A stretch of DNA of 64,000 bases from Halichondria panicea. Lineage: Eukaryota > Porifera > Demospongiae > Suberitida > Halichondriidae. The DNA lies in the NCBI RefSeq assembly GCF_963675165.1, contig NC_087380.1:2223803-2287802 (forward strand), in the 5' to 3' direction. Each line of letters starts with the position of its first letter. Position 1 is the first letter of the stretch. A model generated the notes under the pieces. It saw only the letters and a list, made by a program, of their open reading frames with translations. It was not told the origin of the DNA and made no database searches. This document shows positions 6,012 through 54,730 of the stretch, one piece after another. A program made the position numbers and the translations under genes.

Positions 6012-7276
6012 GTTTTTCCAGCAGCCTGGTTGGCGTAACGATGAGATCAATGCTCGTATTGAGCGTATTGAGGCTGACTCTAGGGGAGTGGAGGAGGACG
6101 AGGGACTCTACGCCACCTACGCCATGCTACACCTATCGCGATGAGTGAGTGGGTACTGTGTATATCTGTACGTCTAGAATCACGAACTAGAAATAGTATT
6201 TAACACTTGCTTAGGTAGTCAGATTGTTGGATTGGACAATCGCACACTGGAATTAATCCTTACTCCATTACTTTTTAGTTTAGCACGTACAAAAAGCATA
6301 CATGCATGGATGGTAGCAATTGTGAAGTATAATTATAGTGCATGGAGTTGGATGTGCTTGGAGCTTTATAGTACTGCCATAGATATTTGGTACCGCAGGT
6401 ATTACCATCATAAGTATTCAGTTTCCATGATACATTGTAACTGAATCTATGCTAAAAGTCTCTTTGTGTTGAGTTCGGCCTCGGAAGTTATGTGGTCAAT
6501 TATGGCTTTATTTATACTTTATGTGGTTGACAAGTATGCCAGAAACTTCTGCATGGAAAATGTTACCTTTTATAGCTGGTTGGAGCTCATCAGTTCTAAT
6601 AAAACCATGCAATGATATATGAATTTCAGTGAAGTATGACAAAGTTATGACAATTTTATGAAGGTCGAACTCAACTCAAATTTACTGTTAGTAAGAGCTT
6701 GCATGAGCAGATGTTGCATGTTGTCTTCACTGCATCACATGATGTACATTGTCTTCTGCAAAAACATTTATGTGTGTGCCTTTACTTGTATAAACTTTCA
6801 TTGTCTGACCTCTTATCCGACTACCAGCAGATATCCCAGGAGCTGAGGAGCATTGTGTGAAAAGACCACCCCCTCTGAGAGAGGACGACCCTCAGAGAGT
6901 GGGAGGGGCTATCCCTGCTACCACCACTACCCCATAAGTACGTACATGTGTGTGAGGTGGTACTGAGAAAGTTGAAAGCTGTAGCTATACATGTATAGTT
7001 GTAGCCTCGACTCCATAATTGGCTACATGTAACAGTATGCTACTTTGAGTGTATGGTGTGCACGTACGTACATGTACAGCATTTGTGCTGTACTGTGACA
7101 TTGCTGTTATGGGTACATCCTATAGAGCCTGTACATACTGTTGTGTATGAATGACAGTGATTGCTCTGTCCCCCCTGCAATCTCAACAGCTGATCAGCTA
7201 CAAAGATCTGAAGGTGTCACGTGACTTGTCGAACTTTTTAGAGTCAGCCTGGATGAACCCAAGCATCTCGCGATCG

Positions 7277-8310
7277 TGAGTCAACCAACATCTATCTTGA
7301 GTGAACTTAACTATTCTGTCAGTATAACGATCCCCAATTGAGATTGTTATCTCGCACCCCCTCACTACCCATGTGTAAACATTGCTTTCAGTTTAGTGTA
7401 TAGTCTCATTTCTATTATGTGCAATGGGTCTTTGCTTTTCTTCAAAGAGTATTATAGCCTGTGCATGAGTAGTGTGTGCTTGCTTTCAATCTGATAGATT
7501 ACTTTAGTGTTTACTGTGAACATTATACCTGTTGTGTTGTCCTGAGGCAATGTTTGTGCACCTGTGTGACTTACTATTATAATAGCCTAGGGCTATGATA
7601 ATTCAAGAACTCTAGCAAATGGTGCATGTTGCCTTTGTTCCATTAGTCAATCTGTTCACTGTGTACAGTGGGCTATCTCAACAAGTGCCTTCTGCTGGGA
7701 CTTTAATGAGAGTTTGTTCACATGCAGTCAATCCCTCCCCTGTTGACTACTAGCTTTTGCCATGCCTGAAAATATTTACTATTGTAAATAAGTGCTGTCA
7801 CTCGTGCCTTGCAGGCACTCGTGCAGTTACTGGCACAGACTCGTGATAATCTTCAGTATCCATAGGATAATGTCATAGTAATTCGATAAGTGTATCTCAT
7901 TATCTAATGACCACAATTATTACCTCGAGTCAGTCATAGTGTGAGAAGGTGACCTACTTTAACTCTATTGCCTTAGCTTTCATTATGATCTGCACTGACT
8001 ATTATAGGAGAAGCCACTAGAAGAAGCCACTACTGGTTTTGAAACCGTTTTATCAATTCTCTGCGTTTATATACTCAACCCAGATATCTAAATATCGCCC
8101 ACAAAATGCTGAGTGGTTAATTTCTTCCGGTTTGTTTTATGCAGTCCCTGTATTGTTTGACAGTTGTAGGGCTCATTCATGTGCAGTCAAACGAGCTAGC
8201 TTATATGTGTCTTTGTGTAAGGCTGACAGTTGTAGTTCTGGTAATTGCTGCTGTTAGGAGCAGTTTAAAGAAAGTGCTATTTCTCGTAAGTATTGTGTAC
8301 CTTTGCACTG
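7277..8310 (+). other. Intronic/decayed sequence of p85 relic 1
   Basis: I see no coding block here. The sequence aligns by eye with 23190-24130, 38280-39400 and 53215-54170 (shared landmarks GATAATTCAAGAACTC, AAGTGCCTTCTGCTGG, GAAGCCACTACTGGTTT), so it belongs to the duplicated unit and is not unique intergenic DNA. Confidence 0.5.
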
Positions 8311-8597
8311 GCCCAAGTTTCTGTAGTCTTTTGTCATCACTCACTGGTAAACCCAATGGGATCTTCCTGGTTCGACCCAAGAGTAATGTGGATCGAGAAG
8401 TCCTCAACTTTCTTAGCACTTTCTTTAAACACAAACACCATCGACAGGTATAGCCTCTAGCTTGCTGTGGTGTTTCTGTATAGACTGGATTAAGAATAAA
8501 AGCACTGCATGTGGCCATGTAGTATATAGTATATTTATAAAATTCCGTCAATGCAACTTGATGTACTATACATGCAAATTTACAATATGATGTATAC

Positions 8598-8855
8598 TAC
8601 GGTAGCCGAGAAGGGTCCCCCACCTCCGCCTACCACCACAATGAACCGCGCGCGCAGAGGTTTTGTTAACTGCGCGTGCGGTAGGAGACACACAACGCGC
8701 GCGGTTAAACAAAGATGACCGCCAGCAAATGTTCAGTGTACAAGGTCAAAGGTAAATGAAGATGTCTGCGTTATAATTAACGCAAGGTGTTCCAACCTCC
8801 ACGCGCGGTTCATTGTGGCGGTAGGTGGAGGCAGGTGACCCTTCTCGGCCACCGT
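8598..8855. mobile_element. MITE-like element with about 54-bp terminal inverted repeats
   Basis: The left end TACGGTAGCCGAGAAGGG and the reverse complement of the right end TACGGTGGCCGAGAAGGG match, and pairing continues through CACAATGAACCGCGCG (left arm about 8598-8651, right arm about 8800-8855). The outermost TA could be a target-site duplication, as in Tc1/mariner-type elements. There is no coding capacity. GC-rich CGCG runs differ from the AT-rich surroundings. It is absent at this place in the three other p85 relics. Confidence 0.75.
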
Positions 8856-9139
8856 AATTTACTTATTTTCTCCTTTCAAATTCTGCCCCGGTTTATAGTT
8901 GTGTACTACAATTTTAAAGTGTCATTCATACATTACTCCCCCGTGCAGAGATGGAGGCAGGTTCAAGAGGATCTCCGTGTACAGAGACCCTGCTGGAGGG
9001 TACGGATTTGCATCACTATTCGAATTTGACTCTATGCTCAGTTTAGTTCTGTACTATGCCACCAACACTGGAGAAACACAACCCTGAACTAGAGACAATG
9101 CTTAGATACCCTGCATTCCATGTGGACAGGGGCCGTTAG

Positions 9140-9561
9140 TAACTGAACTAGCAGCTGTACAGTATTGTATGTGTATATAATAATGTGTAAAATAGGAGTC
9201 TCTTTCTGTGTATTATAATTATAATAATATTATACGTAATATGGCATATTCTAAATACCTACATTGTCATACATATTATCTTGCCAACACTAAAATTTGT
9301 GCTTATTAAGTTCACGTATTAATGTGTATAGGCACTCATTTTTTGCTGATTCGCCCTTTCATCTGTGGAGTTCCTTGTTTGTATGTGTTGTTGTGGTTAG
9401 CTTTTAGTTTTTGCTTGTTTTTTTTTGTTGTGTCTGAAGTTAGAACCTGTGTATTATTTTTATGTAGAGGCTATTCTATGTGGTTGCATGTACACTTTTG
9501 ATGTGCATTCCGTCATACTTCCTGTTGTCATCACAGACTATTATTTAAATAAATTTGGAGC
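9140..9561 (+). other. Intergenic region between p85 relic 1 and gene B
   Basis: AT-rich, with no coding signal. It holds the presumed promoter of gene B. The only motif shared with the other receptor genes is the ACTTCCTG box at 9517-9524. Parts of it (TTCACGTAT, CATTCCGTCATACTTCCTG) are shared with the region before gene E. Confidence 0.5.
9517..9524 (-). promoter_or_regulatory. Candidate ETS-type site upstream of gene B
   Basis: ACTTCCTG is the complement of CAGGAAGT, the classic ETS-family consensus. It lies 55 bp before the ATG at 9580, and genes C, D and E have the same octamer at nearly the same distance. Function is inferred from position and conservation. Confidence 0.45.
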
Positions 9562-9579
9562 ATGTATGAGTTAAGAAGC

Positions 9580-10118
9580 ATGAAGAAGTTACTAGGTGAC
9601 TGTGTCTCTTGGCTGGTCCTTTTGACTGGAGCTGCTCAGCTCCTATTAGTGTGTGGAGAGGGTTCACCTGCTGGTATGTTTAAAGCTTTCATGAGCTCTG
9701 CAACCAAGTCAGTGTATTATAAATGTATTATGCTTTCATGCAGGAATGTACCTGTCTTTGGGGTCCACCACCTTCATTATGAATAACACTGAGATCCTCA
9801 TCACTAGCATTGGAGATGATAATGACATTGATCTTAATCCCCCTCTCATCTGTCACACTGACCTAATGACTTGTTGTACACCCAGTGAGACAATGATGAC
9901 AAGAGGAATTGGAGATTGGCGCTATCCAAATGGGACTCGTGTTCCTGGTGGATCAGGATCTAAATCAGCATCTCGTCCGTATGTGTCATTGAGAAATGTT
10001 CATTCCATTGAACTGGCTCGTAGAGACGATTTTACTCCCCCTCCATTGGATCCAACTGGTTCTTATTGCTGTATTATACCAACTAATGGAGAAAATATGA
10101 CCTTCTGTGCAAAACTGG
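9580..10118 (+). other. Gene B: signal peptide and N-terminal V-like Ig domain
   Basis: The signal peptide has a short basic start and a hydrophobic core ([18 protein letters not shown]). The next exon (9744-10118) has [20 protein letters not shown] and GSYCCIIP, ending at FCAKL. The paired Cys and the W-x-x-PNG core match the last Ig before the membrane, so the two ends of the ectodomain carry related domains. Confidence 0.8.
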
Positions 10119-13100
10119 GTGAGTTGTTTTGGAATATTCTTACTCTTGGATTCCATCCAAACTCTTATTCCAGTTGTGTGCCTGTCTCTCCCTCCCCTGA
10201 CCAATGGAATAGTCTCATACAACGACTCAATACTGGGTCTGGACACTGTGGCCACACACTCCTGTGACACTGGCTACACTCTCAATGGAGGCAGCACCAG
10301 GACTTGTGGGAGTAATGGAATGTGGAGTGGTGTTGATGCAACTTGTGAAGGTGAGTCTACACATGCATGCAATCGATTCCCATGCATTGAACTATATTTA
10401 CCTCCATATTATCCCAGTGGTTTGTCCTGTACTCGCTCTGGAGAATGGAGATATTATGTACACTGATGACAGCAGACGAGTTGGTACTGACGTTACTTAC
10501 AGCTGCATTGTGGGATACCGTCTTGCGAGAGAACCAGAGATAACTTGTCAGTTGAGTGATAATAACATGGCAACTTGGAGTGAATCATTACCAATGTGCA
10601 AAGGTGTGTCAATGTTGCTAAATTACACGTGTGAAAGACATATGAAAACAACACTAAATACCACACTAAAACAACATTATTACGATTGCACTTGTTAGTT
10701 TCCTGCCAATACCTCAACCCGCCTGCCAATTAATAGTGCTATCATCTACACACCCACTTACAGTTTCCCATACATGTATCGTTACACCTGTTCCACATGC
10801 ATTCCCTTCCTCACAGCAATCACCTGCTCTGCTGTCCCTGCCATTGAGAATGGAACGGTCATCTACTCCAGTGGCACAACTTCCCCTTATGACTATGGAA
10901 CAACAGCTACGTATAAGTGTGACACTGGGTATGAGATAACGAGTGGAGACAGTGAGAGGACCTGCACTGGTGTTGTTGATGATGGTCCAATGGTAGAGTG
11001 GAATGAAACTGTGGCAGTTTGTTCAGGTACTAAATGTAGTGCCTAGACATCTATATATACTGCAGTATTTTTCTCAGCTACATGCAATTGAGATCTTATA
11101 CACTACACACATGTGTAGACATTGATGAATGCTCTGGCACTGCTCATGGCTGTGATCATACCTGCACCAACACTCCTGGATCATATACCTGTGACTGCAA
11201 CTCAGGATACCAACTTGCTGCTGATGGAAAAGGATGTTAGTTTTGTAATGACTATACCGTAGTGCTAGAAATTTATGCGCAATGCTATTTATGCCTGCGA
11301 GCGACTATATTATCTAATCAGCTGTCGCGGCATGTACAATCCAAACAAAATGTTGACTGGAAAATTGGCCATAACTCATAATGTTATGCTCGCCTATAAT
11401 TATTTCTTGCACTGTTTGCTTATCTATAGCACTACATTAGTATACTATTTCTGCCTATACAGGTAATGATATTGATGAGTGTACTGGACCCAACATCTGC
11501 CAGCAGCAAGCGTGTACCAACACTGAGGGATCGTTCATCTGTGGATGTGAGGCGCTGGACAGTGACAGAACATCATGTTCTGGTATATTTATAAATTTTA
11601 TTTCTCCAAACCATAATGTGTCTTTTACTAGCCTTCTGTGATGACATCACCCTCACCAATGGAATGGTGATCTATGACCCAACCTCTTCTCCAAGACTGG
11701 AAGGAACTACAGCCACTCACAACTGTAATAGTAGTTATGTTCTCTCTGGTGGATCTCAGAGAATATGTCAGTCGGACAAAACGTGGAGTGGAGAAATTGT
11801 TACATGCAATGGTAAAAAACAAGTATAAAAATTGTCTTTACTTTTCTTATAGCCACCATATGCCCACCTCTTGCTGACTCTCCCTATGGCATGATATTGT
11901 ACTCTCCAAACACTTCCCCATACTTATTTGGGTCACAAGCAACATACACTGTTACATGCCCTCCTGGACAGGAGAGGAGAGGAGGAAATGATGTGAGGAT
12001 TTGCTCGGGTGATGGACATAGTACCATTGGGGTGTGGACTGGAACTGCTCCCGTCTGTGCAGGTTGGCAATGTACAATGAATTGTATTGTTGCACAACGT
12101 TACCGTGTCATGATATTGTACACACACAGCTTAATTTGACATAGTACTCCTCCGTCTATTACCAATGAATCTACTTTTGTATTCATGTTAATTGCGGCAG
12201 TCTCTGAGAGTGTTTTTCCCCCAGCTATAATTGTATACAACTACACACACTGGGTGTATAGGCAATGCTTTGGCAAAACTCTAGCAGAGACAACTCGCCT
12301 GGGAACGAGGCTACATGCATGTACACTGCCAGAAGCAGCCCTTGGGAACACTGAAAACATCGTTGATCTACCCTTTTTTTAATCATTCAAATGCAAAATA
12401 CGTACTTCTACATTGTAAATCTACATGCTATCCTTGAAGATCATTTCACCAGATAGACTTCTGTTTCCACTCTTCATAACAACGTATTGTGTGCGTTCAT
12501 GTCAACAATTTCTACCAACAATAATAACATACGTAACATCATGCTTATTACCTCTTCTATAACACTCTAATATTTTTTGAGCGAACATAAAACATGGCGA
12601 AAAGCATTAGAAAGCGCAGCTTGCACCACGCACTCGTTATACAGGTGATATTGATGAGTGTACTGGACCCAACATCTGCCAGCAAGTGTGTACCAACACT
12701 GAGGGATCGTTCACCTGTGGATGTGAGGCAGGATATGTGTTGGACAGTGACAGAGCATCATGTTCTGGTATGAAGTGATGTGCTATATTGCATTACTTTT
12801 ATTAAAATTATCACAGCAATCACCTGCTCTGCTCTTTCTCTTATTGAGAAAGGGGTGATTGTCTACTCCAGTAACACAGCTGAGCCTTATGACTATGGAA
12901 CAACAGCTGTTTATGAATGTGACATTGGGTATGAAGTAACCAGTGGAGACAGTGAGAGGACCTGTACTGAATCTGCTTTAACTTTAGAAGGAATTTGGAA
13001 TGGAACCATATCTACCTGTTCAGGTATAGTGGTCTGGGCACTGTGCATTGCATGGATACCGTATATAGCAGGTAATTTTCGTTCGTGGAAAATTTTCAAT

Positions 13101-21824: not shown

Positions 21825-22541
21825 TTATAACAGTAACTTCACAAAAACATTTGATTTTAGATTTTACTGCTGCTTTTATAGTTTTTAGATTATTGTACAG
21901 ACTCAGATTATACCAATAGCAAAACTGCATGTGAATGTGTTTACCACTGACTTTTATGATACTGAATTATTGCACTTGCTGGGGTGAGAGTGTGTTCTTT
22001 AACGAATCCTAATGTGTGTTGTTACAATTCTCTCAATAAGTAACTACATGTAGTAAGTTATTGAATCCTATTTATTGCTATGAATATACCCCCCTCCCCT
22101 TGCAGTTTTCTCCAGCAGCGTGGTTGGCGTAATGATGAGATCAATGCTCGTATTGAGTGTATTGAGGCTGACTCTAGTGGAGTGGAGGAGGACGAGGGAC
22201 TCTACGCCACCTATGCCATGCTACACACCTATCGCAATGAGTAAGTGTGGGGGAGAAGGGGGTGAGTACCGTGTACCTGTACGTCTAGTTACATTAAAAT
22301 CACGATTTATATAAATAGTATTTAATACTTGCTTAGGTAATTAGATTGTTGGATTGGACAATCGCATTTACATGCACACTGGGAATTATAATCCTTACTA
22401 CATTACTTAGTTTAGCACTGCGCAAAAATCATACATGGGTGGTAGCTAGTCATTTGAAGTATATATAGTGAAGTTGATGTGCTTGGATCCCTAGATACTG
22501 CCATAGATATTTGGTACTGCAGGTATTACCATCATGAGACC

Positions 22542-24130
22542 GTAAGTATTCAGTTTCCATGATACACTGTAACTGTGTATCTAATTTTACAGTGTACATG
22601 CATGGGAATCTATGCTAGTAAGAGCTTGCATGAGCAGATGTTGCATGTTGTCCTTGCTACATCACATGATGTACATTGTCTTCTTGCAAAAACATTTATG
22701 TGTGCCTTTACTTGCATAAACTTTCACAGTCTAACCTCCTATCCGACTACCAGTTGATATCCGAGGAGCGTTGTGTGAAAAAACCACCCCCTCTCTAACC
22801 CTCGGAGAGTGGGAGGGGTCAGATCAGAGACCGCCACCACCCCATAGGTACATGTGTGTGAGGTGGTACTGAGACAGTTGAAAGCTGTAGCTATACGTGT
22901 ATAGTTGTAGCCTCGACTCCATAATTGTCTACATGTAACAGTATGCTAATAATTACTTTGAGTGTATGGGTGCACGTACGTACATGTACAGCAAATTGTG
23001 CTGTACTGTGACATTGCTGTTATGGGTACTTCCTATAGAGCCTGTACATACTGTTGTGTATGAATGACAGTGATTGCTCTGTCCCCCCTGCAATTTCAAC
23101 AGCTGGTCAGTTACAAGGACCTGAAGGTGTCACGTGACCTGTCGAACTTTTTAGAGTTAGCCTGGATGAACCCAAGTATCTCGTGATCGTAAGTCAACCA
23201 ACATCTATCTTGAGTTAACTATTCTGTCAATATAACGATCCCCAATTGAGGTTGTTATCTTGCACCCCCTCACTACCCATGTGTAAACAGTTGCTTTCAG
23301 TTTGGTGTATAGTCTCATTGCTATTCCATGCACTTAGCTATGTGCACAATGGGTCTTTGCTTTTCTTCAAAGAGTATAATAGTCTGTGCATGAGTGTTGT
23401 GTGCTTGCTTTCAATCTGATAGAGTGCTTTAGTGTTTACTGTGAACATTATACTTGTTGTGTTGCCCTGAGACAATGTTTGTGCACCTGTGTGACCTACC
23501 ATTCAATATAAAATAGCCTAGGGCTGTGATAGTTTAGGAACTCTAGTAAATGGTGCATGTTTCTTTTGTTCCATTAGTATTCAGTGGGGCTATCTCAACA
23601 AGCGCCTTCTGCTGGGACTTTAATGAGACTTTGCGCACATGCGGTCGATCCTTTCTCTTTGTTCACTGCTTTAGCTTTTGCATGTCTGACAATATCAAAA
23701 TAGTAATTTAATAAGTGTATCTCTTACCTTGAGTCATATAGTGTGAATGTGACCTCTATATACTTTAAATCCATTGCCTTAGTTTTCATTATGATCTTTA
23801 CAGACTATATTATACTGTAGAAGAAGCCACTAGAAGAAGCCACTACTGGTTTTGAAACCGTTTATCAAATCTCTGCGTTTATATACTTTGACCAGATATC
23901 TTAATACTTACCACAAAATGGAGTGGCTGACAATAATCTCTTCCGGTCTGTTTTGTGTAGTTATATAGGGCAAGGCTATCATTCATTTGCTGTCAAAGGA
24001 GCTAGTTCATACTGGTATTTGTGTAAGGTTGATAGTTATAGCTGTTACGAACAGTTTTCACTGTAAAGAGAAAGTGCTACGTATTTCTCATAAGTATTTC
24101 GCTATATTCTCTGTATGCACTGGCCCTGGT
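22542..24130 (+). other. Intronic/decayed sequence of p85 relic 2
   Basis: Mostly non-coding and alignable with relic 1. A block around 23101-23187 (LVSYKDLKVSRDLSN) is the counterpart of 7189-7276, with the SH2 start W-M-N-P-S. Confidence 0.45.
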
Positions 24131-24473
24131 TTCTATATTTCTTTGGCTCAAGTTTGTTCTTTCCTCAACTGGTAAACCCAACGAGACATTCCTGGTTCGA
24201 CCCAAGGGTAATGTGGAGGACTCCTCAACTATGCCTTGCATGTCACATGTAAGTAACGGGTGTATAGTTCATTGCCATGGTTTTTCTATTTGTAATAAAG
24301 CACTGCATATTATAGTTCGTATAAAATTCCATGATTTTCAGCTTGCAATTAACTTAATCAACTATGTACTTGTATCTACTGTTATCTACAATGTATTGTG
24401 TGTATTAACCTTTCAAATTCAATTTTGACTATATCTGCTCAGTTTGCAGTTCTATATGTTATAGTTATAGACT

Positions 24474-24665: not shown

Positions 24666-25331
24666 ATGAGTTCTACTAGACTAGGTGTAGGCTACTCAAT
24701 GGACCTTAAACTTAATGTTGCCCCTGAAGGGTGGTTCTCTGATGAAGAGGGTCCTTTGACAGGTCCTTTGACAAAGAAACAAAAACTTTAACTTGAATCT
24801 CGATTTAAAACTGCCACTGAAGAAGACCTAGACAGCTACACAGAAAAACAAGCACCAAAAAACACAAATTACTCTACTACTTGGGCTGTTCGCAACTTTT
24901 TAGACTGGATAAAGCAGCGGAATTTGCGTTTTCCAACTGTTCCAGTACCTGAAGCGCTCCTAACATCTGGCACTGCCAAACAATTGGACCGTTGGTTGTC
25001 TTTTTATGTACTGGAAACCCGAAATAACAAAGGAAAACCTTATCCTCCAAAAACCCTTTATCAGCTACTGTGTGGGCTGCTTCGACACATGCGTGGAATA
25101 AACCCCAACACCCCCAACTTCCTTGACAAGACCAACCCCTCCTACAAGAAGCTCCACCCACAAAACGGAAACATCCAGCTCCTCCCCCAGTTTTGCAGCA
25201 AACAAGCCCAGCACACTTCCCAAGAAACGAGCGGCTCGTACTACTCTCACAAAGCGAAAGGGAAGACACCTATAAACTATAATTTGCAGCAAACAAGCCC
25301 AGCAAACGAGCGGCTCCTATACTACTCTTGA
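24666..25331 (+). pseudogene. Crypton-derived DUF3504 (ZMYM/QRICH1/KIAA1958-like) reading frame, broken
   Basis: From ATG 24666 the frame runs 41 codons to an in-frame TAA at 24789, then stays open to about 25331. The second part has the hallmarks of the domain shared by ZMYM2-4, QRICH1 and KIAA1958, which derives from Crypton tyrosine recombinases: TTWAVRNFLDWIKQRN, LDRWLSFYVLETR and YPPKTLYQLLCGLLRHMRG. The C-terminal part degenerates into a low-complexity, internally repeated stretch (QTSPANERL), and the catalytic recombinase residues are not visible. It is a dead or partial copy of a mobile or domesticated gene, absent from the other three p85 relics. Confidence 0.7.
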
Positions 25332-25692
25332 ACAAAGCGAAAGGAACTTTAGGAAGAAGCCAAAGCTAGAATCCCAGCACTTCCATACATCCAGCTCCTC
25401 CCCCATGCTTAAGTCATGCTTAATAATTTTCTTTGTTTATTTTCCTTATCACACAATCATGTTAAATATTATTTAAACACGTGAAAAACATCCATTGTAC
25501 ATCTGTATTAACATTTTCCCTAACCACAGGGATCTGTATATGATTCCCAATCATTCCTATGTAATAGCAGGTTCTGTATCACAGTTATAAACCATTGTAT
25601 ACCTTAGCAACCACATAGCAACGGGCAAGAAAATTATGCTACAATGTGTCATGCGTCTGCCATCCATTTTTCCCCCTTATTCCCCTGTGCAG
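25332..25692 (+). other. Non-coding stretch between the Crypton-like element and the last p85 exon
   Basis: AT-rich, no open frame or clear repeat. The right boundary of the inserted element must be in here, but I cannot fix it. Confidence 0.4.
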
Positions 25693-26018
25693 AGATGGAG
25701 GCAGGTCCAAGAGGATCCCCGTGTACAGAGACCCTGCTGGAGGGTACGGATTTGCATCACAATTTGAATTTGACTCTCTGCTCAGTTTAGTTCTGTACGA
25801 TGCCACCAACACGATGGAGAAACACCTAAACTGGAGACAATGCTTAGATACCTTGCATTCCATGTGGACAGGGGCCGTTAGTAACTGAACTAGCAGCTGT
25901 ACAGTATTGTATGTGTATGTGTATGCATGTGTATTGGATTGTGCATGTATACGTGAGATTTTCATTCTGTATATGTGCTTATGTATGTGGGTGCATGCAT
26001 TTGATGGGTAGAAATCAG

Positions 26019-36327: not shown

Positions 36328-36365
<38 letters not shown>

Positions 36366-36937: not shown

Positions 36938-38408
36938 TTATAACAGTAACTTCACAAAAACATTTGATTTTAGATTTTACTGCTGCTTTTATAGTTTTTA
37001 GATTATTGTACAGACTCAGATTATACCAATAGCAAAACTGTGAATGTGTTTACCACTGACTTTTATGATACTGAATTATTGCACTTGCTGGGATGAGAGT
37101 GTGTTCTCATAATGTGTGTTGTTACCAATTCTCTCCCCACCCACCATATTGCAGGTTTCTCCAGCAGCATGGTTGACATAACGATGATATCAATGCTCGT
37201 ATTGAGCGTATTGAGGCTGACTCTAGTGGAGTGGAGGAGGACGAGGGACTCTACGCCACCTACGCCATGCTACACACCTATCGCAATGAGTGAGTGGGGG
37301 GGAGGGGTGGGTACAGTGTACCTGTACGTTAAAATCACGAATTAGAATTAAGATTTGCTTAGGTTATTAGATTGTTGGATTGAACAATCGCATTTATGTG
37401 CACGCCGGAATTAATCCTTACTCCATTATTTTTTGTTTAGCACTTACGTAAAAAGCATACATGGATTGTAGTTAGTCATTAATTGTGAAGTATATAGTGG
37501 AGTTGATATGCTTGGATCACTAGATACTGCCATGGATATTTGGTACCACAGGTATTACCATCGTAAGTATTCAGTTTCCACGATACATTGTAAGTGTGTA
37601 TCTTAATTTTTAAGGTACATGGGAATCTACTGCTAATTTAAGAGCTTGCATGAGCAGATGTTGAATGTTGTTTTTGCTGCATCACATGATGTACATTGTC
37701 TTTTGCAAAAACATTGATGTGTACCTTTACTTGCATAAACTTTCATTGTTTTCGACCTCCAGGTCCGACTACTAGAGGATATCCCAGGGAGCTGAGGGAG
37801 CGAGATGTGAAGAGACCACCCCCTCTGAGAGAGGATGGCCCTCAGAGAGTGAGAGGGGCCAGACCAGAGACCATCCCTGCTACCACCACTACACCATATG
37901 TACATGTGTGTGAGGTGGTACTGGAAAGTTGAAAGGCCTCGACTCCAGGCCCTTAATTGCATGTAATCGAGGCTACATTTAGTTGCTACAACTAAGACTT
38001 TCATAACTTCGTCATGAGTGTATAAATTATGGTTGTACGTACATACATGTGCAGTATTCAATCGATGTACAATGTGATGTACTATGACATTGCTTTTATG
38101 TATGAGCCTGTATCAGACTATTGTGTGAATGGCATTACTTTTAGTGATTGCTATGATTATATCTGTCCCCCCGCAGTCTCAACAGCTGATCAGTTACAGG
38201 GATCTGAAGGTGTCACGTGACCTGCTGACACCCGCACTTTTTAGAGTTAGCCTGGATAAACCCAAACATCTCGTGAGTCAACCGATGAGTATCCCTGCCT
38301 AATGATTCCCAATTGAGGTTTTTATCTATTACGTACTAGTATCTACCCATACACTTCTCTTTCAGTTGGGTTTCCAGTATAATTATCAGCTATTCCGTGC
38401 ATTTCAGC

Positions 38409-38631: not shown

Positions 38632-38639
38632 TGTGCACA

Positions 38640-39981
38640 ATGTGTCTTTTGCTTCTTTCAAAGAGTTAGCCTGTGAGTGGTGTGTGATTGCTTTCAATCT
38701 GATAGAGTGCTCTAGTGTTTATTGTGAGCATTACATGTTGTGTTGCCCGGAGGTATGTTTGTGCACCTTTCAATAGCCTAGGGCTGTGATAGTTTAGGAA
38801 CGCTAGCAAATGGTGCATGTTGCCTTTGCTCCAGTAGTCAATCTGTTCTTGTATGTAGTGGGGCTATCACAACAAGTGCCTTCTGTTGGGACTTTAATGT
38901 AAACTTTTCTTCATTGACTATACTTAGCTTTTGCATGTCTGACAATCCATCAAAATTGAAATAGTAAGTTTATCTCACTATTCGATGCACATTCTATTAC
39001 CTTGATATATATATAGTCACTCAATTTGTAGTGTGAATGTAACTCTAAATCTATTACCTTAGCTTTCATTATGATCTGCACTGACTACTAGGAGAAGCCA
39101 TAGCTGCATGGTTTTGAAACCCTATCAAATCCCTGTGTTTATATACTCATATCTCAGTATCGCCCACAAAAATTAATGCTGAGTAGCTGACAATCTCTTC
39201 CGGTATGTCCCAGTTTTGTGTATTTGCTTGCAGGGCTCATTTATTTGCTGTTTTTTAGTAAGGCTGATAGTGGTTATAGTGTGTGCAGTGGTATACTAGC
39301 TGGTACAAAGGTAAGAAACAGTTTGAAGATGTACCATAATAGGTAGTACGTATTTGCCTTATCTAAAGAAATTTCTTAACACTACTGGCTTGATCTGGTT
39401 TCCTTTGTTCGCTCAACTTTGTTCTTGCTCACTGCCCAACCCAAGGGTAACGTGGAGGAGTCTCAAGCCTTGCCACACCCGTCGGCATTGTGTAAATATT
39501 TACATTAAAAAACCACAGCAATGAGCTTTTCTTTATGCATAGTTTGTACATCTTAATAATTCCATGCTTTAGCTTGCAATACCACTGGCCATGCCAATAG
39601 ATCACTTACTATACACTGTACTTACGTTTTAATATTCAATCTCAGAATCAATTTTACTCCGTGTGTGCGCAACGCGCAGTTAGGTGTGTGTGTCTGTTTG
39701 TGTGTGTGCGTGTCGTTGTGTGCGTGTACGCGTGTGTGCGAAAAAATTTGCGATTATTCTCTTGATTCACAATAATTTTATAAGGTCATTACGGTGTTGA
39801 TGCTGTGCAATAAAGTTCAATGCACGGGGTGAATGCTCTATGAGCATCTTGTACGTTATAACATAATAATAGATGTGGGTATTAGGCTACAATGCCTGTA
39901 TATGATTTCATCCGCATAAGCCTTCAAGTTGTCATGCATCTGACATTTACTATTCATCTTGCTAATACCCCCTTCCTGCAG
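38640..39981 (+). other. Decayed p85 relic 3 sequence
   Basis: No coding block apart from the damaged SH2 remnant near 39410-39450. A GT-rich microsatellite (TGTGTGTCTGTTTGTGTGTG) lies at about 39683-39740. Confidence 0.45.
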
Positions 39982-40275
39982 AGATGGATCCATGTTGAGA
40001 GATACGGATTTGAATCAGTTTTCGAGTTTGACCCATTGCTCAGTTTAGTTCTGTACTATGCCACCAACACGATGGAGAAACACAACCCTGAACTAGAGAC
40101 AATGCTTAGATATCCTGCATTCCATGTGGACAGGGGCCGTTAGTAACTGAACTAGCAGCTGTACAGTATTGTATGTGTATGTGTGTTTGTGCTCTTTCTG
40201 TGTATGTGATGTTATGTAGACTATGTGGGTACTGGTACACTTTTGTGTGGAAATTGTTTGCAATGATAATTTCAG

Positions 40276-40283
40276 ACTTCCTG
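40276..40283 (-). promoter_or_regulatory. Candidate ETS-type site upstream of gene D
   Basis: ACTTCCTG, 68 bp before ATG 40352. The following TGTTGTCATC phrase seen in B and C is changed here, so the octamer is the best-kept part. Confidence 0.45.
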
Positions 40284-40351
40284 CATGTTGTTTAATAGAT
40301 CTAGATTAGTCAATCACACAATCTATCAATTTGAGCATGCATGAATACAGC

Positions 40352-40908
40352 ATGAAGAACTTACAAGGTGACTGTGTCTCTTGGCTGGTTCTTTTGACTG
40401 GAGCTGCTCACCTCCTACTAGTGTGTGGAGAGGGTATGTTTAACCATGGTCATAGACTAGTCTAGTAGTATTATGCATAATAGATCTATATACTAACGGA
40501 GTGTGCTATATAGCCAGTGCATGCATGCAGGAGTGTACCTGTCGTCGGGATCGACCAACATTACCATTACCAACAACAATACTGAGATCCTCATCACTGC
40601 CATTGGAGAGGGTGCTCCGAGTGGTCTCCCTTCTCTCACCTGTCACACTGACCTCACTACCTGCTGTAGAAGTATGAATGACAACAATGGTAATGGAAGA
40701 CGAGGACAGTGGACGTATCCTGATGGGAGTGTGATACTGGGAAATGGTCCCTCAGTGGCTGCTAGACAGCAGTTCTACATGAAAAGGAATGCTCCCCAAC
40801 TCATCAGGCTAAACCGTATACAGGGTAGCAACCCTCCCACTCCAACCGGGTCCTACTGTTGTACTGTACCAACTAATGGAGGAGAAATGACCCTCTGTGC
40901 TAACCTGG
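40352..40908 (+). other. Gene D: signal peptide and N-terminal V-like Ig domain
   Basis: After the signal exon, 40531-40908 encodes CHTDLTTCC, WTYPDGS, GSYCCTVP and LCANL. It is clearly diverged from the near-identical pair in B and E, with a longer Asn-rich insert (NDNNGNGRRG). Confidence 0.8.
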
Positions 40909-43900
40909 GTGAGTAGTTCTGCATGTAATATTCACTATTCCATTCTATTCACAACCCCCTTCCAGTTGTGTGCCTGTCTCTCCCTCTCCTGAACAATGGA
41001 ATAGTCTCATACAGTGACCCAACACTGGGTCTGAACACTGTGGCGAACTACACCTGTGACACTGGCTACACTCTCGAAGGAAACATTACCAGGACTTGTG
41101 GGAGGGATGGAGTGTGGAGTGGATCAGCTCCATCCTTCTGTGAACGTAAGTGGAACACTGTTTATGTACGTTTTTAATGTGTTTCAATTTCCATACTGAG
41201 GTAGCAGCCTGTTTTGACCTCACTCTCATCACCAATGGAAACATTACCTACAGTGCTGGATCCCCTGACATCAGACCTATTGGCACTACAGCTACCTACA
41301 TGTGCAATCCTGGCTACACTCTCATTGGAAGTACCACCACCAGGGTATGTGTGACTGGAGGGAATTGGAATGGATCAACTCCAACTTGTCAAGGTGAGTT
41401 TTGTAACTCTTACGCAGTTCGCCTTCAAGTACATAATGTGCTATTATGTATAGACACAGGACCTACTGCTGCTCCACCCACCACCTGCTCTGACCTGACT
41501 AATCTTACCAATGGAATGATCAACTACAATATGGGGACTGCTAGTCTGAGACCAGTGCACACTGTAGCCATCTTCAGATGTAACACTGGATACACTCTCA
41601 ATGGAGGCGTTACTAAGACTTGTGGAAATGATGGAGTGTGGAGTGGGTCAGATCCAGTGTGTCAGCGTAAGTGAAATGGAATGTGGACTACTCTATTGTT
41701 AAGTGTACCTGTTAAACAGTTTCTACAGGTATCTGCTTTGACGTACCCTCACTGATGAATGGGATGATCTCTTATAGTGGTGATGAATCTCCTGACAATA
41801 GGCCAGTGGCCACTATGGCTACCTACACCTGTAACCCTGGCTACACTCTCAATGGAGGCAGCACCAGGACTTGTGGAAGTGATGGAGTGTGGAGTGGGTC
41901 ACCTCCAGTATGCCAGCGTAAGTGAAATGGAATTTTAACTATTCTATTGTTAAGTGTACCTGTTTCTGTACAGGTATCTGCTTTGACGTAACCTCACTGA
42001 TGAATGGGATGATCTCTTACATTGGTGATGAATCTCCTGACAATAGGCCAGTGGCCACTATGGCTACCTACACCTGTAATCCTGGCTACACTCTCAATGG
42101 AGACAACACCAGGACTTGTGGGAGTGATGGAGTGTGGAGTGGGTCACCTCCAGTATGCCAGCGTAAGTGAAATGGAATGTGGACTATTCTATTGTTAAGT
42201 GTACCTGTTTCTGTACAGGTATCTGCTTTGACGTAACCTCACTGATGAATGGGATGATCTCTTACAGTGGTGATGAATCTCCTGACATTAGACCAGTGGC
42301 CACTATGGCTACCTACACCTGTAACCCTGGCTACACTCTCAATGGAGGCAGCACCAGGACTTGTAGAAGTGATGGAGTGTGGAGTGGGTCACCTCCAGTA
42401 TGCCAGCGTAAGTGAAATGGAATGTGGACTATTCTATTGTTAAGTGTACCTGTTTCTGTACAGGTATCTGCTTTGACGTAACCTCACTGATGAATGGGAT
42501 GATCTCTTACAGTGGTGATGAATCTCCTGACAATCGACCAGTGGCCACTATGGCTACCTACACCTGTAATCCTGGCTACACTCTGAATGGAGGCAGCACC
42601 AGGATTTGTAGAAGTGATGGAGTGTGGAGTGGGTCACCTCCAGTATGCCAGCGTAAGTGAAATGGAATGTGGACTATTCTATTGTTAAGTGTACCTGTTT
42701 CTGTACAGGTATCTGCTTTGACGTAACCTCACTGATGAATGGGATGATCTCTTACAGTGGTGATGAATCTCCTGACAATCGACCAGTGGCCACTATGGCT
42801 ACCTACACCTGTAACCCTGGCTACACTCTGAATGGAGGCAGCACCAGGACTTGTAGAAGTGATGGAGTGTGGAGTGGGTCACCTCCAGTATGCCAGCGTA
42901 AGTGAAATGGAATGTGGACTATTCTATTGTTAAGTGTACCTGTTTCTGTACAGGTATCTGCTTTGACGTAACCTCACTGATGAATGGGATGATCTCTTAC
43001 AGTGGTGATGAATCTCCTGACATTAGACCAGTGGCCACTATGGCTACCTACACCTGTAACCCTGGCTACACTCTCAATGGAGGCAGCACCAGGACTTGTA
43101 GAAGTGATGGAGTGTGGAGTGGGTCACCTCCAGTATGCCAGCGTAAGTGAAATGGAATGTGGACTATTCTATTGTTAAGTGTACTTGTTTCTGTACAGGT
43201 ATCTGCTTTGACGTACCCTCACTGATGAATGGGATGATCTCTTACAGTGGTAATGAATCCCCTGACAATAGACCAGTGGCCACTGTGGCTACCTACACCT
43301 GTAACCCTGGCTACACTCTCAATGGAGGCAGCACCAGGACTTGTGGGAGTGATGGAGTGTGGAGTGGGTCACTTTCAGTATGTCAACGTAAGTGGAATGG
43401 ATTTTGAACTACTTGTATTTATTGTGTCGATTATTATACAGAGATACTGACCTGTTCTGACCTCACTCTCACCAATGGAGACATTACCTACAGTGCTGGA
43501 TCCCCTGACAACAGACCTTTCATCTCTACAGCTACCTACACCTGCAATCCTGGCTACACTCTCACTGGAGGTACCACTACCAGGATCTGTGTGCGTGGAG
43601 GGAGTTGGGATGGGCCAGCTCCAACTTGCCAAGGTTCCAAACTTAGTATTAGCTAAGTAGTATGTAGTATTTTGTACATTCGTGAACTGTACTCAGTTTA
43701 TGAGCAATGCTGCTTGTTCATGTTTTCCACTGACTACTAAAGTACTATTTAACAATAATCTATACCTGTGCAGCCATTGTGTGTCCTCCTCTACCGGCCA
43801 TTACCAATGGCATGATCTCCTACTCTCCTAATGTCACCCCTGGCTATGACCTAGGAACTGAGGCAACCTACACTTGTGAGGCTGGGTTCTATTTTGAGGG

Positions 43901-49900: not shown

Positions 49901-51145
49901 GTGCTGCAAACATTATGCAGTGTTGTAGTCAAATTTGCATTTTATTTTTAGCTTTAAGATTCCATTTTTCATTTTCAGATGAGATGCATCGAGTCAAGCT
50001 TCGATTCTCACCTTCTGGTTCTAACTACATCAATGCCAGCTACATTCATGTGAGGAAGCTAAACAGTACCGCCCACACACTATTTCTTCACTGTTCATGT
50101 GCTACTTCTTGTCCAGGGCTACCAATGCACTATGTATTTCTCTAGCGACTTTTTATGTGATTTAATACTTTAATTGTGAAGTGTTTCTCCCAACAATAAT
50201 CCACTACTCTCTTGTCCAGGGCTACCAACAGAGGCGAGGGTACATAGCCACTCAAGGTCCCCTGGAGCACACCACTGGAGACTTGTGGAGGATGGTGGTG
50301 GAGAATGAGTGCAGCTGTATCGTCATGCTCTGTACCCTCAGGGAGGGGGAGGAGGTGTGTTGTATTTATGTATCTTTTTTGTTTATGCTTTCATTTTTAA
50401 CTTGCATTTAGAAAGTGAATATTTGCACATAAACAGTTTTAACAAAACTCTTTATGCAGCAAAAAGTACAATGTATACATAACCCTAAACCTCCTATAGC
50501 TCTTATATTGAACAGTATATGCACTATACTGTATCTTCACTTATTTTTTTCTTCTTCAACAGAAGGTGTGCCATCGCTACTGGCCCAAGTTCCAAGGAGA
50601 GGCAGGAACTTATGGTGACTTCACTGTCACTCAGCAGACATTCGACGCTTACGGTGACTACGTTGTCAGGAAGCTATCTGTTGCCATGGCAGCCTCCGAT
50701 GATATCCCCTCCGAAGTGACACAGTTTCACTTCACCCGCTGGACCGAGAAGGACCCCCCACAGACCCCTGTCGCTATACTAGACGTTGTGCAGGAAGTGA
50801 ATGCTGTTCAGATGGCCTCAGGCAATAAACCCATTGTCGTCATGTGCAAGTAAGTGTGTGTATGTGTATGCGTGCTTTGATGGTACAGCTATACCTATGC
50901 TAAACAAGTATCTCAATGTCTCACTACCCCCCCCCCCACATACACACACGCACACACACACACACACAGCAACTTATGCATTAAAGTAAACAATGTCTCA
51001 CTACCCCCCCCCCACATACACACACGCACACACACACACACAGCAACTTATGCAGTAAAGTAAACAATGTCTCACTACCCCCCCCCACACACACACGCAC
51101 ACGCAGCAACTTATGTATTAAAGTAAACAATATCTCACTACCCCC

Positions 51146-51183
<38 letters not shown>

Positions 51184-51750
51184 TATGCACACGCACACGC
51201 AGCAACTTATGCGCATTAAAGTGAACAATGTCTCACTACCCCCCCCCCACAAACACACACGCACACGCACACGCAGCAACTTATGCATTAAAGTAACTCA
51301 CTACCCACACTTAATACCTTACTACCTCCCCCTCACACACATGCAGCAATGGGATTGGTCGCACTGGAGTGTTCATCACCCTGCATGCTCAACTGGAGCG
51401 ACTCAAGATTGAGGGTGTGGTCGATCTGTTCCAGTTCATCAAGTTTGCTCGCAAACAGAGGGAGGGACTCGTTAGCAGTCCTGTAAGTCATTAACAATAC
51501 AAGTCTATTGGTCTACTGTATTCTCTATTATCTATTCTATGCTGTATAGATCCAATGTTTAGCTACTCTGTTTATTATGAAAAAGTACGTGTGTGCTTTC
51601 AGCTTTGTACATTCATTTATTATCTTTAAATATGAAGTAATCACTGTACATCCACCCACTGTGCAGGAGATGTATGCTTTCTGTCACGAGGCACTGGCTG
51701 ACTATGTGGACAGTTTTGAAACTTATGCCAACTTCAAAGAACTGGTTTAA
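40352..51750 (+). CDS. Gene D: receptor tyrosine phosphatase with Ig, 17 CCP and 4 Ig domains
   Basis: Complete receptor of about 2,389 residues by my model. Signal exon 40352-40433 ([19 protein letters not shown]), V-like Ig 40531-40908, 17 CCP exons (40966-45621), Ig exons 45680-47048, TM 47319-47424, juxtamembrane 47533-47738 and 47798-47901. D1 exons are 47968-48055, 48101-48177, 48240-48276, 48328-48422, 48513-48641, 48890-49189 and 49376-49564. D2 exons are 49763-49862, 49979-50049, 50220-50354, 50563-50849, 51347-51482 and 51667-51750. Phases close to TAA at 51748. An in-frame ATG at 40337 would add five residues. The CCP block holds a seven-unit 245-bp array. The juxtamembrane exon is nine bases shorter than in gene C. 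Confidence 0.9.
40966..45621 (+). other. Gene D: 17 CCP/Sushi exons
   Basis: Exons 40966-41145, 41205-41393, 41454-41666, then seven 189-bp exons at 245-bp spacing from 41729 to 43387, then 43442-43633, 43774-43983, 44203-44427, 44519-44737, 44923-45132, 45182-45391, 45448-45621. For the second CCP I used the acceptor GTAG ending at 41204, the only one nearby that keeps the phase. The donor at 43634 (GTTCCA) is weak. Confidence 0.87.
41729..43387 (+). repeat. Seven-unit, 245-bp tandem array of CCP exon plus intron
   Basis: Exons begin at 41729, 41974, 42219, 42464, 42709, 42954 and 43199, exactly 245 bp apart. Each encodes one 63-codon CCP (GICFD, then MNGMISYSGDESPD and NPGYTLNG). The introns (56 bp) repeat with the same phrases (GGACTATTCTATTG). 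Sequence differences are few; the middle units look nearly identical. Confidence 0.95.
45680..47048 (+). other. Gene D: four membrane-proximal Ig-like domains
   Basis: Exons 45680-45949, 45997-46296, 46352-46696 and 46743-47048, with the order and key Cys residues of gene C. Introns between them are also nearly the same as in C. Confidence 0.85.
47319..47424 (+). other. Gene D: transmembrane exon
   Basis: EPSSSSTAM stalk, then a hydrophobic helix with Met in its middle ([12 protein letters not shown]), ending at Arg. Confidence 0.9.
47968..49564 (+). other. Gene D: phosphatase domain D1 (catalytic)
   Basis: WPD at 48954-48962 and catalytic Cys codon 49049-49051 in [11 protein letters not shown]. 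Substrate loop KNRFGN as in the others. Confidence 0.93.
49763..51750 (+). other. Gene D: phosphatase domain D2
   Basis: P-loop Cys codon 50845-50847, Arg retained after the splice; acid loop WTEKDPP. Exons 2-4 and their introns look identical to gene C. Confidence 0.9.
50908..51295 (+). repeat. Minisatellite with CA-rich core in D2 active-site intron of gene D
   Basis: Same five-unit structure as 36091-36475, with small differences in the lengths of the C and CA runs, as expected for slippage after duplication. Confidence 0.85.
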
Positions 51751-52787
51751 TTAACAGTAACTCACACAAACATTCGATTTTAGATTTTACTGCTGCTTTT
51801 ATAGTTCTTAGATTATTGTACAGACTCAGATTATACCAATAGCAAAACTGTGAATGTGTTTACCACTGACTTTTATGATACTGAATTATTGCACTTGCTG
51901 AGGTGACGTTTGTTGTTTAACGAATCCTAATCTGTGTTGTTACCAATTCTCTCCCCACCCACCATATTACAGGTTTCTCCAGCAGCGTGGTTGGTGTAAC
52001 GATGAGATCAATGCTCGTATTGAGCGTATTGAGGCAGACTCTAGTGGAGTGAAGGAGGACGAGGGACTCTACGCCACCTACACCACCTACGCCATGCTAC
52101 ACACCTATCGCAATGAGTGAGTGGGGGAGGGGGTGGTTACAATGTACCTATACTACTAAAATACGAATGAAGATTGTTTAGTGGATTATTGAAAGGATCG
52201 AGGGACAATTGTATTTATATGTATGGTGTAGCTAGACATTTATTATACTTGTGCATGAAGTATAATTATAGTGGAGTTGGATGTGCTTGGAGCCTTTGGT
52301 ACTGCCATTGATTGTTTGCAGGTATTAATGTGTTCAGTGTCCGTGATACAGTGTAACTGTCACTGTATTTAAATTGCAGTATGGGAATCTATTATGCTAG
52401 CTTGCATGAGCAGATTTTGCATGTTGTCTTTGCTGTATCACATGATATACATTGTCTTCTGCAAAAACATTTATGTATGCTTTTACTTGTATAAACTTTC
52501 ATTGTTTCTGACCTCTAGATCTGATATCTCAGGAGCTGAAATAGCGAGGTGAGAGGACGACCCTTGTAGAGTAAAAGGGGCCACACCAGAGACCACCACC
52601 ACTACCCCACATGTGTATGAGGTGGCTGAGAAAGTTGAAAGCTGTAGCTACGTGTGTATAATATGTGTATAGTACGTTATAGCCTCGACTCAAGGCACAT
52701 AATTATAATTAGCATGTATGCTAAAACTAAAGCCTTTAACTTTGAGTGTATGCATGTGGGTGTATAATATTATGGTGTATAATATTA

Positions 52788-52994
52788 TACCGTATAGCTG
52801 GTAATTTTTGTGGGGCAATTATTATGTTCGTGGTTTTCGTGGTTGAAGCTCAGACCACATTTTACCCATGAATGAAGCGACATTGCCTACCTTTACTGCA
52901 GCAACCACGAAAATATCATTCACGAAGTGACTATAAATATCGCTCAACCACAAATTTTGTTTTTTGCCCCCCGAAAATTACCCGCTATATGGTA
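52788..52994. mobile_element. MITE of the TACCGTATAGC family in p85 relic 4
   Basis: Left end TACCGTATAGCTGGTAATTT and right end AAAATTACCCGCTATATGGTA are inverted repeats, followed inward by TGTGGGGCA / TGCCCCCCG. The interior has AACCACGAAAA and TTTCGTGGTT, a second inverted pair. Confidence 0.75.
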
Positions 52995-52999
52995 TAATT

Positions 53000-54548
53000 A
53001 TGTACATGTACTGCAATTATGTGCTGTACTGTGACCTCGCTTTTATGAATTCTTTCTATAGAGCCAGTACATGCTGTTGTGGAATTATGAATGACATTAG
53101 CGATTGGCTATATATCTGTCCTCCCTGCAGTCTCCACAGCTGATCAGTATATAGAAGGTGTCACATGACCTCACACTTTTAGAGTTAGCTTGGATGAACC
53201 CACACATCTCGTGAGTTCACCATCTCTTGAGTGAACTTAGCTATTCTGTCAGTAGACTAGTATATATAATGATCCCCTATTGAGGTTGTTGTATCTTGCA
53301 CCCCAACTACCCCATGTGTACACATAATTTATTTGCTTTCAGTTTGGTTTCCTATAGCCACAATGGCATTATTATAGGTATTCCATGAACTTAGCTATGT
53401 GCACAAGTGGTCTTTGCTTTCTTTCAAAGAGTATATAGTCTGGCTGTGACTGGTGTGTGCTTGCTTTCAATTTGATAGAGTGCTCTATATAGTGTTTATG
53501 AATTGCCTGTTGTGTTGCTCTGAGGCAATGTTTTTGCACGTGTGTGGCCTTTCAATAGCTTAGGGCTGTGATAGTTTAGGAACTCTAGCAAATGGTGCAT
53601 GTTGCCTTTGCTCCATTAGTCAATCTGTTCATATGACGGTAGAGTGGGACTATCTCAACAAGTGCCTTCTGCTAGAACTTTAATGATCAATCCTTTCTTT
53701 GTTGACTACTTCAGCTTTTGCATGTCTGCTCATCAACATTATCCAACATTCTAATCACTATAACTTGATTTATAGTGTGAAAGTGACCTACATACTGTAA
53801 CTCTATATTGCCTTGCATAATTATAGCTTTCACTATAGAGGAAGCTAGTATATATAAAGAAGCCACTTCTGGTTTTGAAACTGTTTATCAAATCTCTTCG
53901 TTTATATACTCTGCCCAATATCCAATATCGCCCACAAAATTAATGCTTCCGTTCTGTTTTGTGCAGTCCTAGTATTGTTTGACAGTTGAGGGCTCATTTA
54001 TGTACTGTCAAATTAATGCTTAGACTGGTCTTGATGTAGCTCTGGCAATTACTATGCTGTTAGGAACAGTTGTCACTGTTTAAAAAGAAAGTACTTGTTG
54101 AGTTAGTGTTATAATTATGCAGTTCTTATAATTATTCTCTGCCTTCGCACGACATGGTTTATGTTACTTTCTTTGGTGTTCACTGGTAAATTCAACGAGT
54201 CTTCAACCGTGCCTTGTCACCCACACACACGCAACGTATCATGTAAGTAACAGGTAGTTCATATAATGATACTTACAAATCTTACAATGTGATGTATCTA
54301 TTATACAATGCATTGTGCTTTCATTCTTAACTTATAAGTAGTCAACTCTCTGCTCAGTTCATCACAATTATTCTCCGATTCAAGATCATTTCCATGTTAA
54401 GGTCATTACCAGATAAAAAGTTGATCGCGTGTCCATTCTGTAAACGCAGGGGGTGAATGCTCTCTGAGCATCTTCTTCTATATACTACCATTTTAAAGTG
54501 TCATGCATTAATTGCCATCTACCATTTTTTCTCCCATTCCCTCGGTAG
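53000..54548 (+). other. Decayed p85 relic 4 sequence
   Basis: Alignable to the other relics but without an open SH2 core. The W-M-N-P start of SH2 survives near 53187 as LAWMNPHIS. Nothing else is recognised. Confidence 0.45.
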
Positions 54549-54730
54549 AGATGGAAGAAGGTTCAAGGTACCCTGCTGTATGGGGGGGGTACGGATTTGC
54601 ATCACCATTCGAATTTGACTCTTTTCTCAGTTTATTTCTGTACTATGCCACCAACACGATGGAGAAACACAACCCTGAACTAGAGACAATGCTTAGATAC
54701 CCTGCATTCCATGTGGACAGGGGCCGTTAG

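What the first reader, a model, noticed from the sequence alone, without database searches (positions are those of the whole stretch)
6012..54730. A broken p85 (PI3K regulatory) 3' end rides behind every receptor
All four complete intergenic spaces hold the same gene tail: the end of the inter-SH2 helix, then parts of a C-terminal SH2 domain (GIFLVRPKSN, GGYGFAS, MEKHNPELE...YPAF). Each copy has its own lesions: frameshifts in copy 1, frameshift plus insertion in copy 2, nonsense and FLVR loss in copy 3, FLVR loss in copy 4. The first duplication therefore carried a neighbouring p85 gene's end along. The relics are neutral clocks for ordering the receptor duplications.
Basis: partly seen in the sequence, partly recalled or inferred. 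Interest (0 to 1): 0.75.

Follow-up and report, generated by a model that had tools for sequence, protein, structure and literature searches.

The report
Dead p85 tail repeated before receptors
In this animal genome the broken 3' end of a PI3-kinase regulatory (p85) gene has been copied about 36 times, mostly just upstream of a cell-surface receptor gene; the protein message is dead, but a short stretch around its old stop codon is unusually well kept and may now serve the receptor's promoter.

Summary
The four window tails belong to a 444-kb array with 36 same-strand copies of the p85 last exon. A p85-type gene with an open six-exon C-terminus stands at its left edge, about 150 bp before the first receptor; the last receptor found has no tail behind it. 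Both ends fit a founding duplication of [p85 3' end + receptor]. Two corrections. The tail is tied to the receptor ahead of it (31 of 38 first exons), not the one behind. And the relics are poor clocks: a 75-nt block across the old stop is about 3.5 times slower than the first 150 nt of the exon, without codon-position signal, and exon distances conflict with receptor distances. Unproved novel reading: a dead SH2 exon end became part of the receptors' upstream control DNA. Four receptors lack it. A second p85-receptor cluster looks similar.

The parts
6010..6146 (+). copy 1, p85 exon E1 (end of inter-SH2 region), 2-nt deletion
   Evidence: parent L001:5079-5213
6816..6934 (+). copy 1, p85 exon E2 (linker), frameshifted
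7181..7270 (+). copy 1, p85 exon E4
8340..8446 (+). copy 1, p85 exon E5 (FLVR half of cSH2), several indels
8947..9141 (+). copy 1, p85 last exon E6, 2-nt deletion
9141..9173 (+). copy 1, conserved 33-mer directly after the old p85 stop (exact match)
9560..9672 (+). first (signal-peptide) exon region of the receptor following copy 1
22104..22242 (+). copy 2, E1 (open)
22742..22840 (+). copy 2, E2, frameshifted
23096..23184 (+). copy 2, E4
24168..24247 (+). copy 2, E5 (FLVR), 4-nt insertion
25691..25883 (+). copy 2, E6, 4-nt deletion
25883..25915 (+). copy 2, conserved 33-mer (exact)
37153..37291 (+). copy 3, E1 with TGA
37761..37896 (+). copy 3, E2 with TAG and frameshift
38175..38274 (+). copy 3, E4, 7-nt insertion
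39439..39493 (+). copy 3, second half of E5 only (FLVR part not found)
39979..40145 (+). copy 3, E6, 5' part lost
40145..40177 (+). copy 3, conserved 33-mer (exact)
51971..52118 (+). copy 4, E1, 9-nt insertion
52523..52610 (+). copy 4, E2 with stop and 22-nt deletion
53129..53212 (+). copy 4, E4 with several indels
54197..54228 (+). copy 4, 32-nt remnant of E5
54547..54732 (+). copy 4, E6 with small indels near its 5' end
54732..54764 (+). copy 4, conserved 33-mer (exact)
5649..5738 (+). receptor 1 last coding exon (end of second phosphatase domain) with its own stop, before the p85 tail

Best explanation
A receptor gene started about 150 bp downstream of the stop codon of a p85 (PI3K regulatory subunit) gene. 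A duplication with one breakpoint in the p85 intron before exon E1 and the other in the flank behind a receptor made the unit [p85 E1-E6 + receptor]; further unequal exchange and deletion spread and eroded it into the present 444-kb array. Shown: a p85 gene with an open C-terminus at the left edge, tails between units, no tail behind the last receptor found, no copy with a complete C-terminal SH2, no codon-position constraint. Inferred: the founding breakpoints, and that the tail travels because it is the 5' flank of the receptor ahead of it, so that what lies nearest the receptor's start is kept and the rest decays. That the slow block is regulatory is a further step and is scored apart, in the section on the most novel reading.
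For: Parent p85 C-terminus is one open frame over six GT-AG exons; nSH2 upstream on the same strand (47.2 bits at C4:1872960; PDB p85-alpha E=1.9e-34) and a weak iSH2 match. Its stop is at C4:1879050 and the receptor first-exon match starts at C4:1879199. 36 plus-strand E6 copies, parent included, all in C4:1878848-2322737. The last receptor (L005) shows no match to the parent p85 or to window tails behind its phosphatase exons. Receptors end with their own stop before E1 in the five units read (window 1-4, L004). 31 of 38 plus-strand first exons have E6 within 1.2 kb upstream. Of 35 non-parent copies, at least part of E1 is matched in 8, E2 in 14, E3 in 5, E4 in 12, E5 in 28. 33 of 40 distinct E6 indels are not multiples of three. 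Codon positions are nearly equal. A second cluster with the same order stands on the other strand.
Against: Most array units do not carry this phosphatase type and E1 is matched in 8 of 35 copies (10 non-parent plus-strand places genome-wide), so later breakpoints or deletions are needed that I did not reconstruct. Alignable parts of introns 3, 4 and 5 are more diverged from the parent (0.11-0.12) than exons (0.035-0.092); intron 1 aligned over 60 bp only (0.067) and intron 2 not at all. Constraint in the parent lineage explains part of this; a contribution of gene conversion is not excluded. Nine E6 copies, parent included, carry no frame-shifting indel. No expression data.
Confidence: 0.82

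Rival explanations
1. Same origin, but pure hitchhiking: the tails have no function at all, and the slow block around the stop is chance, an alignment effect, or the result of gene conversion among array copies.
For: E6 divergence among units 1-4 (9/187 to 21/158) is about that of receptor four-fold sites or above it (0.017-0.107), as for neutral DNA. Four receptors do without E6. Tandem arrays convert, and E6 distances conflict with receptor distances. Nine or so indels fall inside the last 46 nt of E6.
Against: 33 genome-wide matches to the 33-mer after the stop with up to 3 mismatches, 21 exact. Substitutions against the parent are 0.011 per site in the first 50 nt past the stop (33 of 35 copies aligned), 0.088 in the next 100 nt (28 of 35), 0.11-0.12 in introns 3-5. 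0 of 20,000 site permutations give so slow a 75-nt window. Conversion confined to about 75 nt inside otherwise divergent flanks would itself need explaining.
Confidence: 0.4
2. The tails still make protein: either a small C-terminal SH2 protein or a receptor-p85 fusion through splicing from the phosphatase exons into E1.
For: E1 keeps AG and GT in all four window copies. Five of 36 non-parent E6 copies pass the test of acceptor, frame and stop, and four more are open throughout or to their last codons but fail at the acceptor or the stop.
Against: No non-parent copy passes both the E5 and the E6 test: E6 5 of 36, one of those (2129905) only through compensating shifts; E5 3 of the 22 copies that could be scored out of 35; no overlap. 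Codon positions are nearly equal. The exon before the receptor's last exon ends in phase 0 in units 1 and 2 and E1 needs two preceding bases, so skipping the last exon into E1 would, in that phase, meet a stop after eight codons in each of the four window copies (sequences).
Confidence: 0.04
3. The shared E6 block persists mainly because it serves as the homology patch at which unequal exchange and conversion between units take place.
For: Median pair of copies: upstream intron unalignable, E6 about 93% identical (630 pairs). Units 3 and 4 share a 9-kb block (93.6% with gaps) that stops at 37935/52641, before E4-E6.
Against: That block boundary is not at E6. E6 as a whole is not less diverged than receptor silent sites among units 1-4.
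Confidence: 0.15
4. Assembly artefact (collapsed or duplicated haplotypes).
For: Highly repetitive region; assembly quality was not testable here.
Against: Units 1-4 differ by 5-13% in E6, with different lesions and different flanks.
Confidence: 0.02

Closest known systems
Human RCCX module (STK19B, TNXA in the C4 repeat)
   Same: A tandem duplication carried the broken end of a neighbouring gene with it; STK19B is only 914 bases of the 3' end of STK19, immediately upstream of C4B (PMC8362596, passages seen).
   Different: Here about 36 copies, a p85 donor, receptors as cargo, and a slow block across the dead stop codon.
PIK3R (p85) class IA PI3K regulatory subunits
   Same: The parent gene has nSH2, a weak iSH2 match and cSH2; its SH2 exons match p85-alpha best in the PDB. 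The tails are recognised by DNA identity to it.
   Different: The tails start at E1, so lack nSH2 and most of iSH2, and no copy passes as an intact cSH2.
Compact sponge promoters (Amphimedon; PMC4773876, abstract, start of introduction and outline seen)
   Same: Tightly packed genes, so a promoter can lie against the previous gene's end.
   Different: What I saw of that paper does not describe relic exons as promoters. I did not identify the organism of this window.

Membership tests
PIK3R / p85 (parent gene) | N-terminal SH2 of p85 type | tested here: met
   PDB p85-alpha E=1.9e-34; Pfam SH2 46.6 bits, cut-off 21
PIK3R / p85 (parent gene) | inter-SH2 coiled coil | tested here: inconclusive
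   PF16454: 19.9 bits, E=0.035 at the parent locus and 23.3 bits for two exons joined by me, both under the 31.5-bit cut-off; at the lax E<=1, 8 of 14 control genomes also rang, none over the cut-off. The paralogue at C4:1811396 scores 32.0
PIK3R / p85 (parent gene) | C-terminal SH2 | tested here: met
   22.9 bits, cut-off 21, E5+E6 joined; FLVR present. Not listed by the exon-by-exon genome search
PIK3R / p85 (parent gene) | SH3 and BH domains (in long isoforms) | not tested
   the 5' end of the gene was not modelled
PIK3R / p85 (array tails) | complete open C-terminal SH2 | tested here: not met
   no non-parent copy passes both the E5 and the E6 test
Pseudogene / relic | loss of frame and of codon-position constraint | tested here: met
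Receptor promoter element | drives transcription of the receptor | not testable with these tools
   only a comparative footprint

The most novel reading that the evidence does not exclude
The 3' end of a dead SH2-coding exon, about 75 bp across the old p85 stop codon, has been co-opted as an upstream promoter or first-exon element of a large receptor family, so that most new receptor copies carried a piece of another gene as their control DNA; a similar linkage is seen in a second p85-receptor cluster.
Probability: 0.38. Interest if true: 0.65.

Novelty: new variant of a known kind. Interest (0 to 1): 0.5.

Why it matters
It gives an oriented landmark beside most units of a large receptor array in an animal, with the source gene still present, so the origin of the array can be read. 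If the slow block is regulatory, it is a countable case of coding sequence that died as protein while a part of it survived as control DNA, testable in about 30 natural replicates. It also warns against using such relics as neutral clocks.

Tried and rejected
Receptor-p85 fusion: considered because E1 sits 220-280 bp behind the phosphatase exons and keeps its splice sites; rejected on the receptor's own stop and on splice phase. Protein-level selection on tails: rejected on codon positions, indel sizes and exon tests. E6 as an indispensable promoter: weakened by four receptors without it. An exon/intron identity by global alignment was useless (shuffled introns scored 0.926) and is not used; replace it. 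One search scored the copy at 1938760 on a wrong stretch; one search corrected it for E6. One search failed on a file name. Seven paper searches (listings only) showed no title or abstract on p85 tails in a receptor array; that is all the literature I searched. Receptor domain names (sushi, Ig, phosphatase, signal peptide) are from motifs that I recall; I ran no family search on the receptors.
Full report
OBSERVATION. The window is C4:2223803-2287802 of an unnamed 131-Mb genome. The parent's last exon matches human p85-alpha in the PDB (E=2.8e-14), though it is too short for a Pfam hit by itself, and the Pfam SH2 search of the genome lists no tail. Receptor domain names below rest on motifs that I recall, not on a family search.

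THE ARRAY. A DNA search with the last exon finds 37 matches, all on contig 4: 36 on the plus strand between 1,878,848 and 2,322,737 and one on the minus strand at 2,601,336. The leftmost belongs to a p85-type gene: nSH2 at 1872960, a weak iSH2 match at 1874645, and a C-terminus open over six exons with GT-AG introns. I did not model its 5' end. The receptor first-exon match starts at 1879199, about 150 bp past the p85 stop at 1879050. The last plus-strand receptor (L005) shows no match to the parent p85 or to window tails behind its phosphatase exons. These are the two ends expected if the unit is [p85 3' end + receptor].

WHERE THE RECEPTOR STOPS AND THE TAIL STARTS. The second phosphatase domain ends in its own stop in the four window units, in L004, in the last unit and in the inverted one. 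In the window E1 lies 220-280 bases further on; homology to the parent starts in the intron just before E1 (window about 5998, parent L001 about 5065). The preceding receptor exon ends in phase 0 in units 1 and 2, where I read it, and E1 expects two preceding bases, so skipping into E1 in that phase would meet a stop after eight codons in each of the four window copies.

DEAD AS PROTEIN. Of 37 E6 copies, 6 pass a test of acceptor, frame and stop, the parent included. One of the other five (2129905) passes only through compensating shifts. Four more (1898879, 2115060, 1966420, 1989423) are open throughout or to their last codons but fail at the acceptor or the stop; nine copies, parent and two fragments included, have no frame-shifting indel in E6. 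E5 could be scored in 22 of 35 non-parent copies, and 3 pass, one of them (1966420) having lost the FLVR part; none of the three passes E6. Thirty-three of 40 distinct E6 indels are not multiples of three. Parent-to-copy differences by codon position are 0.0505, 0.0481 and 0.0592 over all exons, four-fold sites 0.0726; among copies, diversity is 0.0895, 0.0902 and 0.1041 in E6. The slight four-fold excess is what a constrained parent lineage would add (inference). Calibration: receptor four-fold divergence over the 15 pairs of six units is 0.017-0.107, and alignable receptor introns 0.005-0.106.

TIED TO THE NEXT RECEPTOR. Receptor first exons were searched on their own: 40 matches, 38 on the plus strand. 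Of these 38, 31 have E6 and 27 have the post-stop 33-mer within 1.2 kb upstream. By contrast the phosphatase exon of this type was found in only 9 plus-strand units and E1 in 11 plus-strand places including the parent. Upstream p85 exons are often missing: of 35 copies, at least part of E1 is matched in 8, E2 14, E3 5, E4 12, E5 28. E1-E4 counts may be low where I fetched only about 1.9 kb upstream, and copies were found through E6, so E6 itself cannot be missing among them.

A SLOW BLOCK. Parsimony steps on a tree of 36 copies: 244 in E6 sites 1-150, 27 in 151-193, 20 in the next 32 sites past the stop; beyond site 225 steps rise to about 4 per site and indels increase sharply, where the alignment is poor. 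The slowest 75-nt window (sites 146-220) has 35 steps; 0 of 20,000 site permutations reach it. In 151-193 the third codon position is not the fastest (0.50, 0.93, 0.47), so this is not coding constraint. The 33-mer after the stop occurs 33 times in the genome with up to 3 mismatches, 21 exactly: 32 in the array, one in the inverted group, 0 in the reversed control. Substitutions against the parent are 0.011 per site in the first 50 nt past the stop and 0.088 in the next 100. Caveats: copies are not independent, alignment quality differs along the exon, several indels do fall in the end of E6, and local conversion could mimic constraint.

TOWARDS A PROMOTER. Aligning 28 of the 38 plus-strand first exons with 200 bases upstream shows further conserved pieces nearer the ATG, among them ACTTCCTGTTGTCATCA; ACTTCCTG is exact in 24 of 28. 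I recall this as an ETS-type site; no call tested that. Seven of 38 first exons have no E6 within 1.2 kb. I read four of these seven (L042-L045): they keep the nearer block and the first exon but have no 33-mer or E6 end. So the nearer block is general, and the p85-derived block is common but dispensable, if those four receptors work.

A SECOND CASE. On the minus strand at C4:1759-1813 kb stand a p85 paralogue with nSH2 and iSH2 and three further tails (L038-L040), for which searches list no SH2 or iSH2 match nearby. Sushi-like receptor exons follow on the same strand in L008, L039 and L040, seen by eye; the stretch L038 showed none. A candidate signal peptide begins about 54 nt after the p85 stop in L008. 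By eye L038 has open E5 and E6, L039 a shifted E6, L040 an open E6 without an open E5. The pairing of p85 and receptor is thus older than the window's array, or arose twice.

CLOCKS. Units 3 and 4 share a 9-kb block and differ at 3 of 173 receptor four-fold sites, but at 13 of 154 E6 sites. Unit 1 and the unit at 2295480 have identical E6 (0/191). The tails cannot simply order the receptor duplications.

VERDICT. A confirmed, large and instructive case of a gene end co-duplicated with its neighbour, like STK19B upstream of C4B in RCCX (PMC8362596, passages), with a testable hint that part of the dead exon was kept as control DNA.

Noticed in passing
24792-25331: ORF of 179 aa between E5 and E6 of copy 2; Pfam QRICH1 27.3 bits, under its cut-off of 30.8; possibly a broken tyrosine-recombinase-type mobile element (recalled).
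   Followed up: partly
L041 (C4:3668500-3673500), minus strand near 3671798: An isolated p85 last-exon-like ORF of 67 aa with no receptor recognised nearby by eye.
   Followed up: partly
C4:1759904-1812823: Second p85-receptor cluster on the minus strand with one nSH2-bearing gene and three tails; FLVR reads FLCR.
   Followed up: partly
C4:1878848-2095950: No phosphatase exon of the window's type was found in this left half of the array; what the cytoplasmic ends of these receptors are was not worked out.
   Followed up: no
L006 (C4:2578500-2585000): The inverted receptor group ends in a long imperfect tandem repeat just after the phosphatase exons.
   Followed up: no
41556-43631: Run of repeats about 245 bp apart, mostly some 84-92% alike, inside the receptor that starts near 40349.
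   Followed up: no
8600-8860: Stretch with long inverted ends between E5 and E6 of copy 1, by eye; probably a small inserted element.
   Followed up: no
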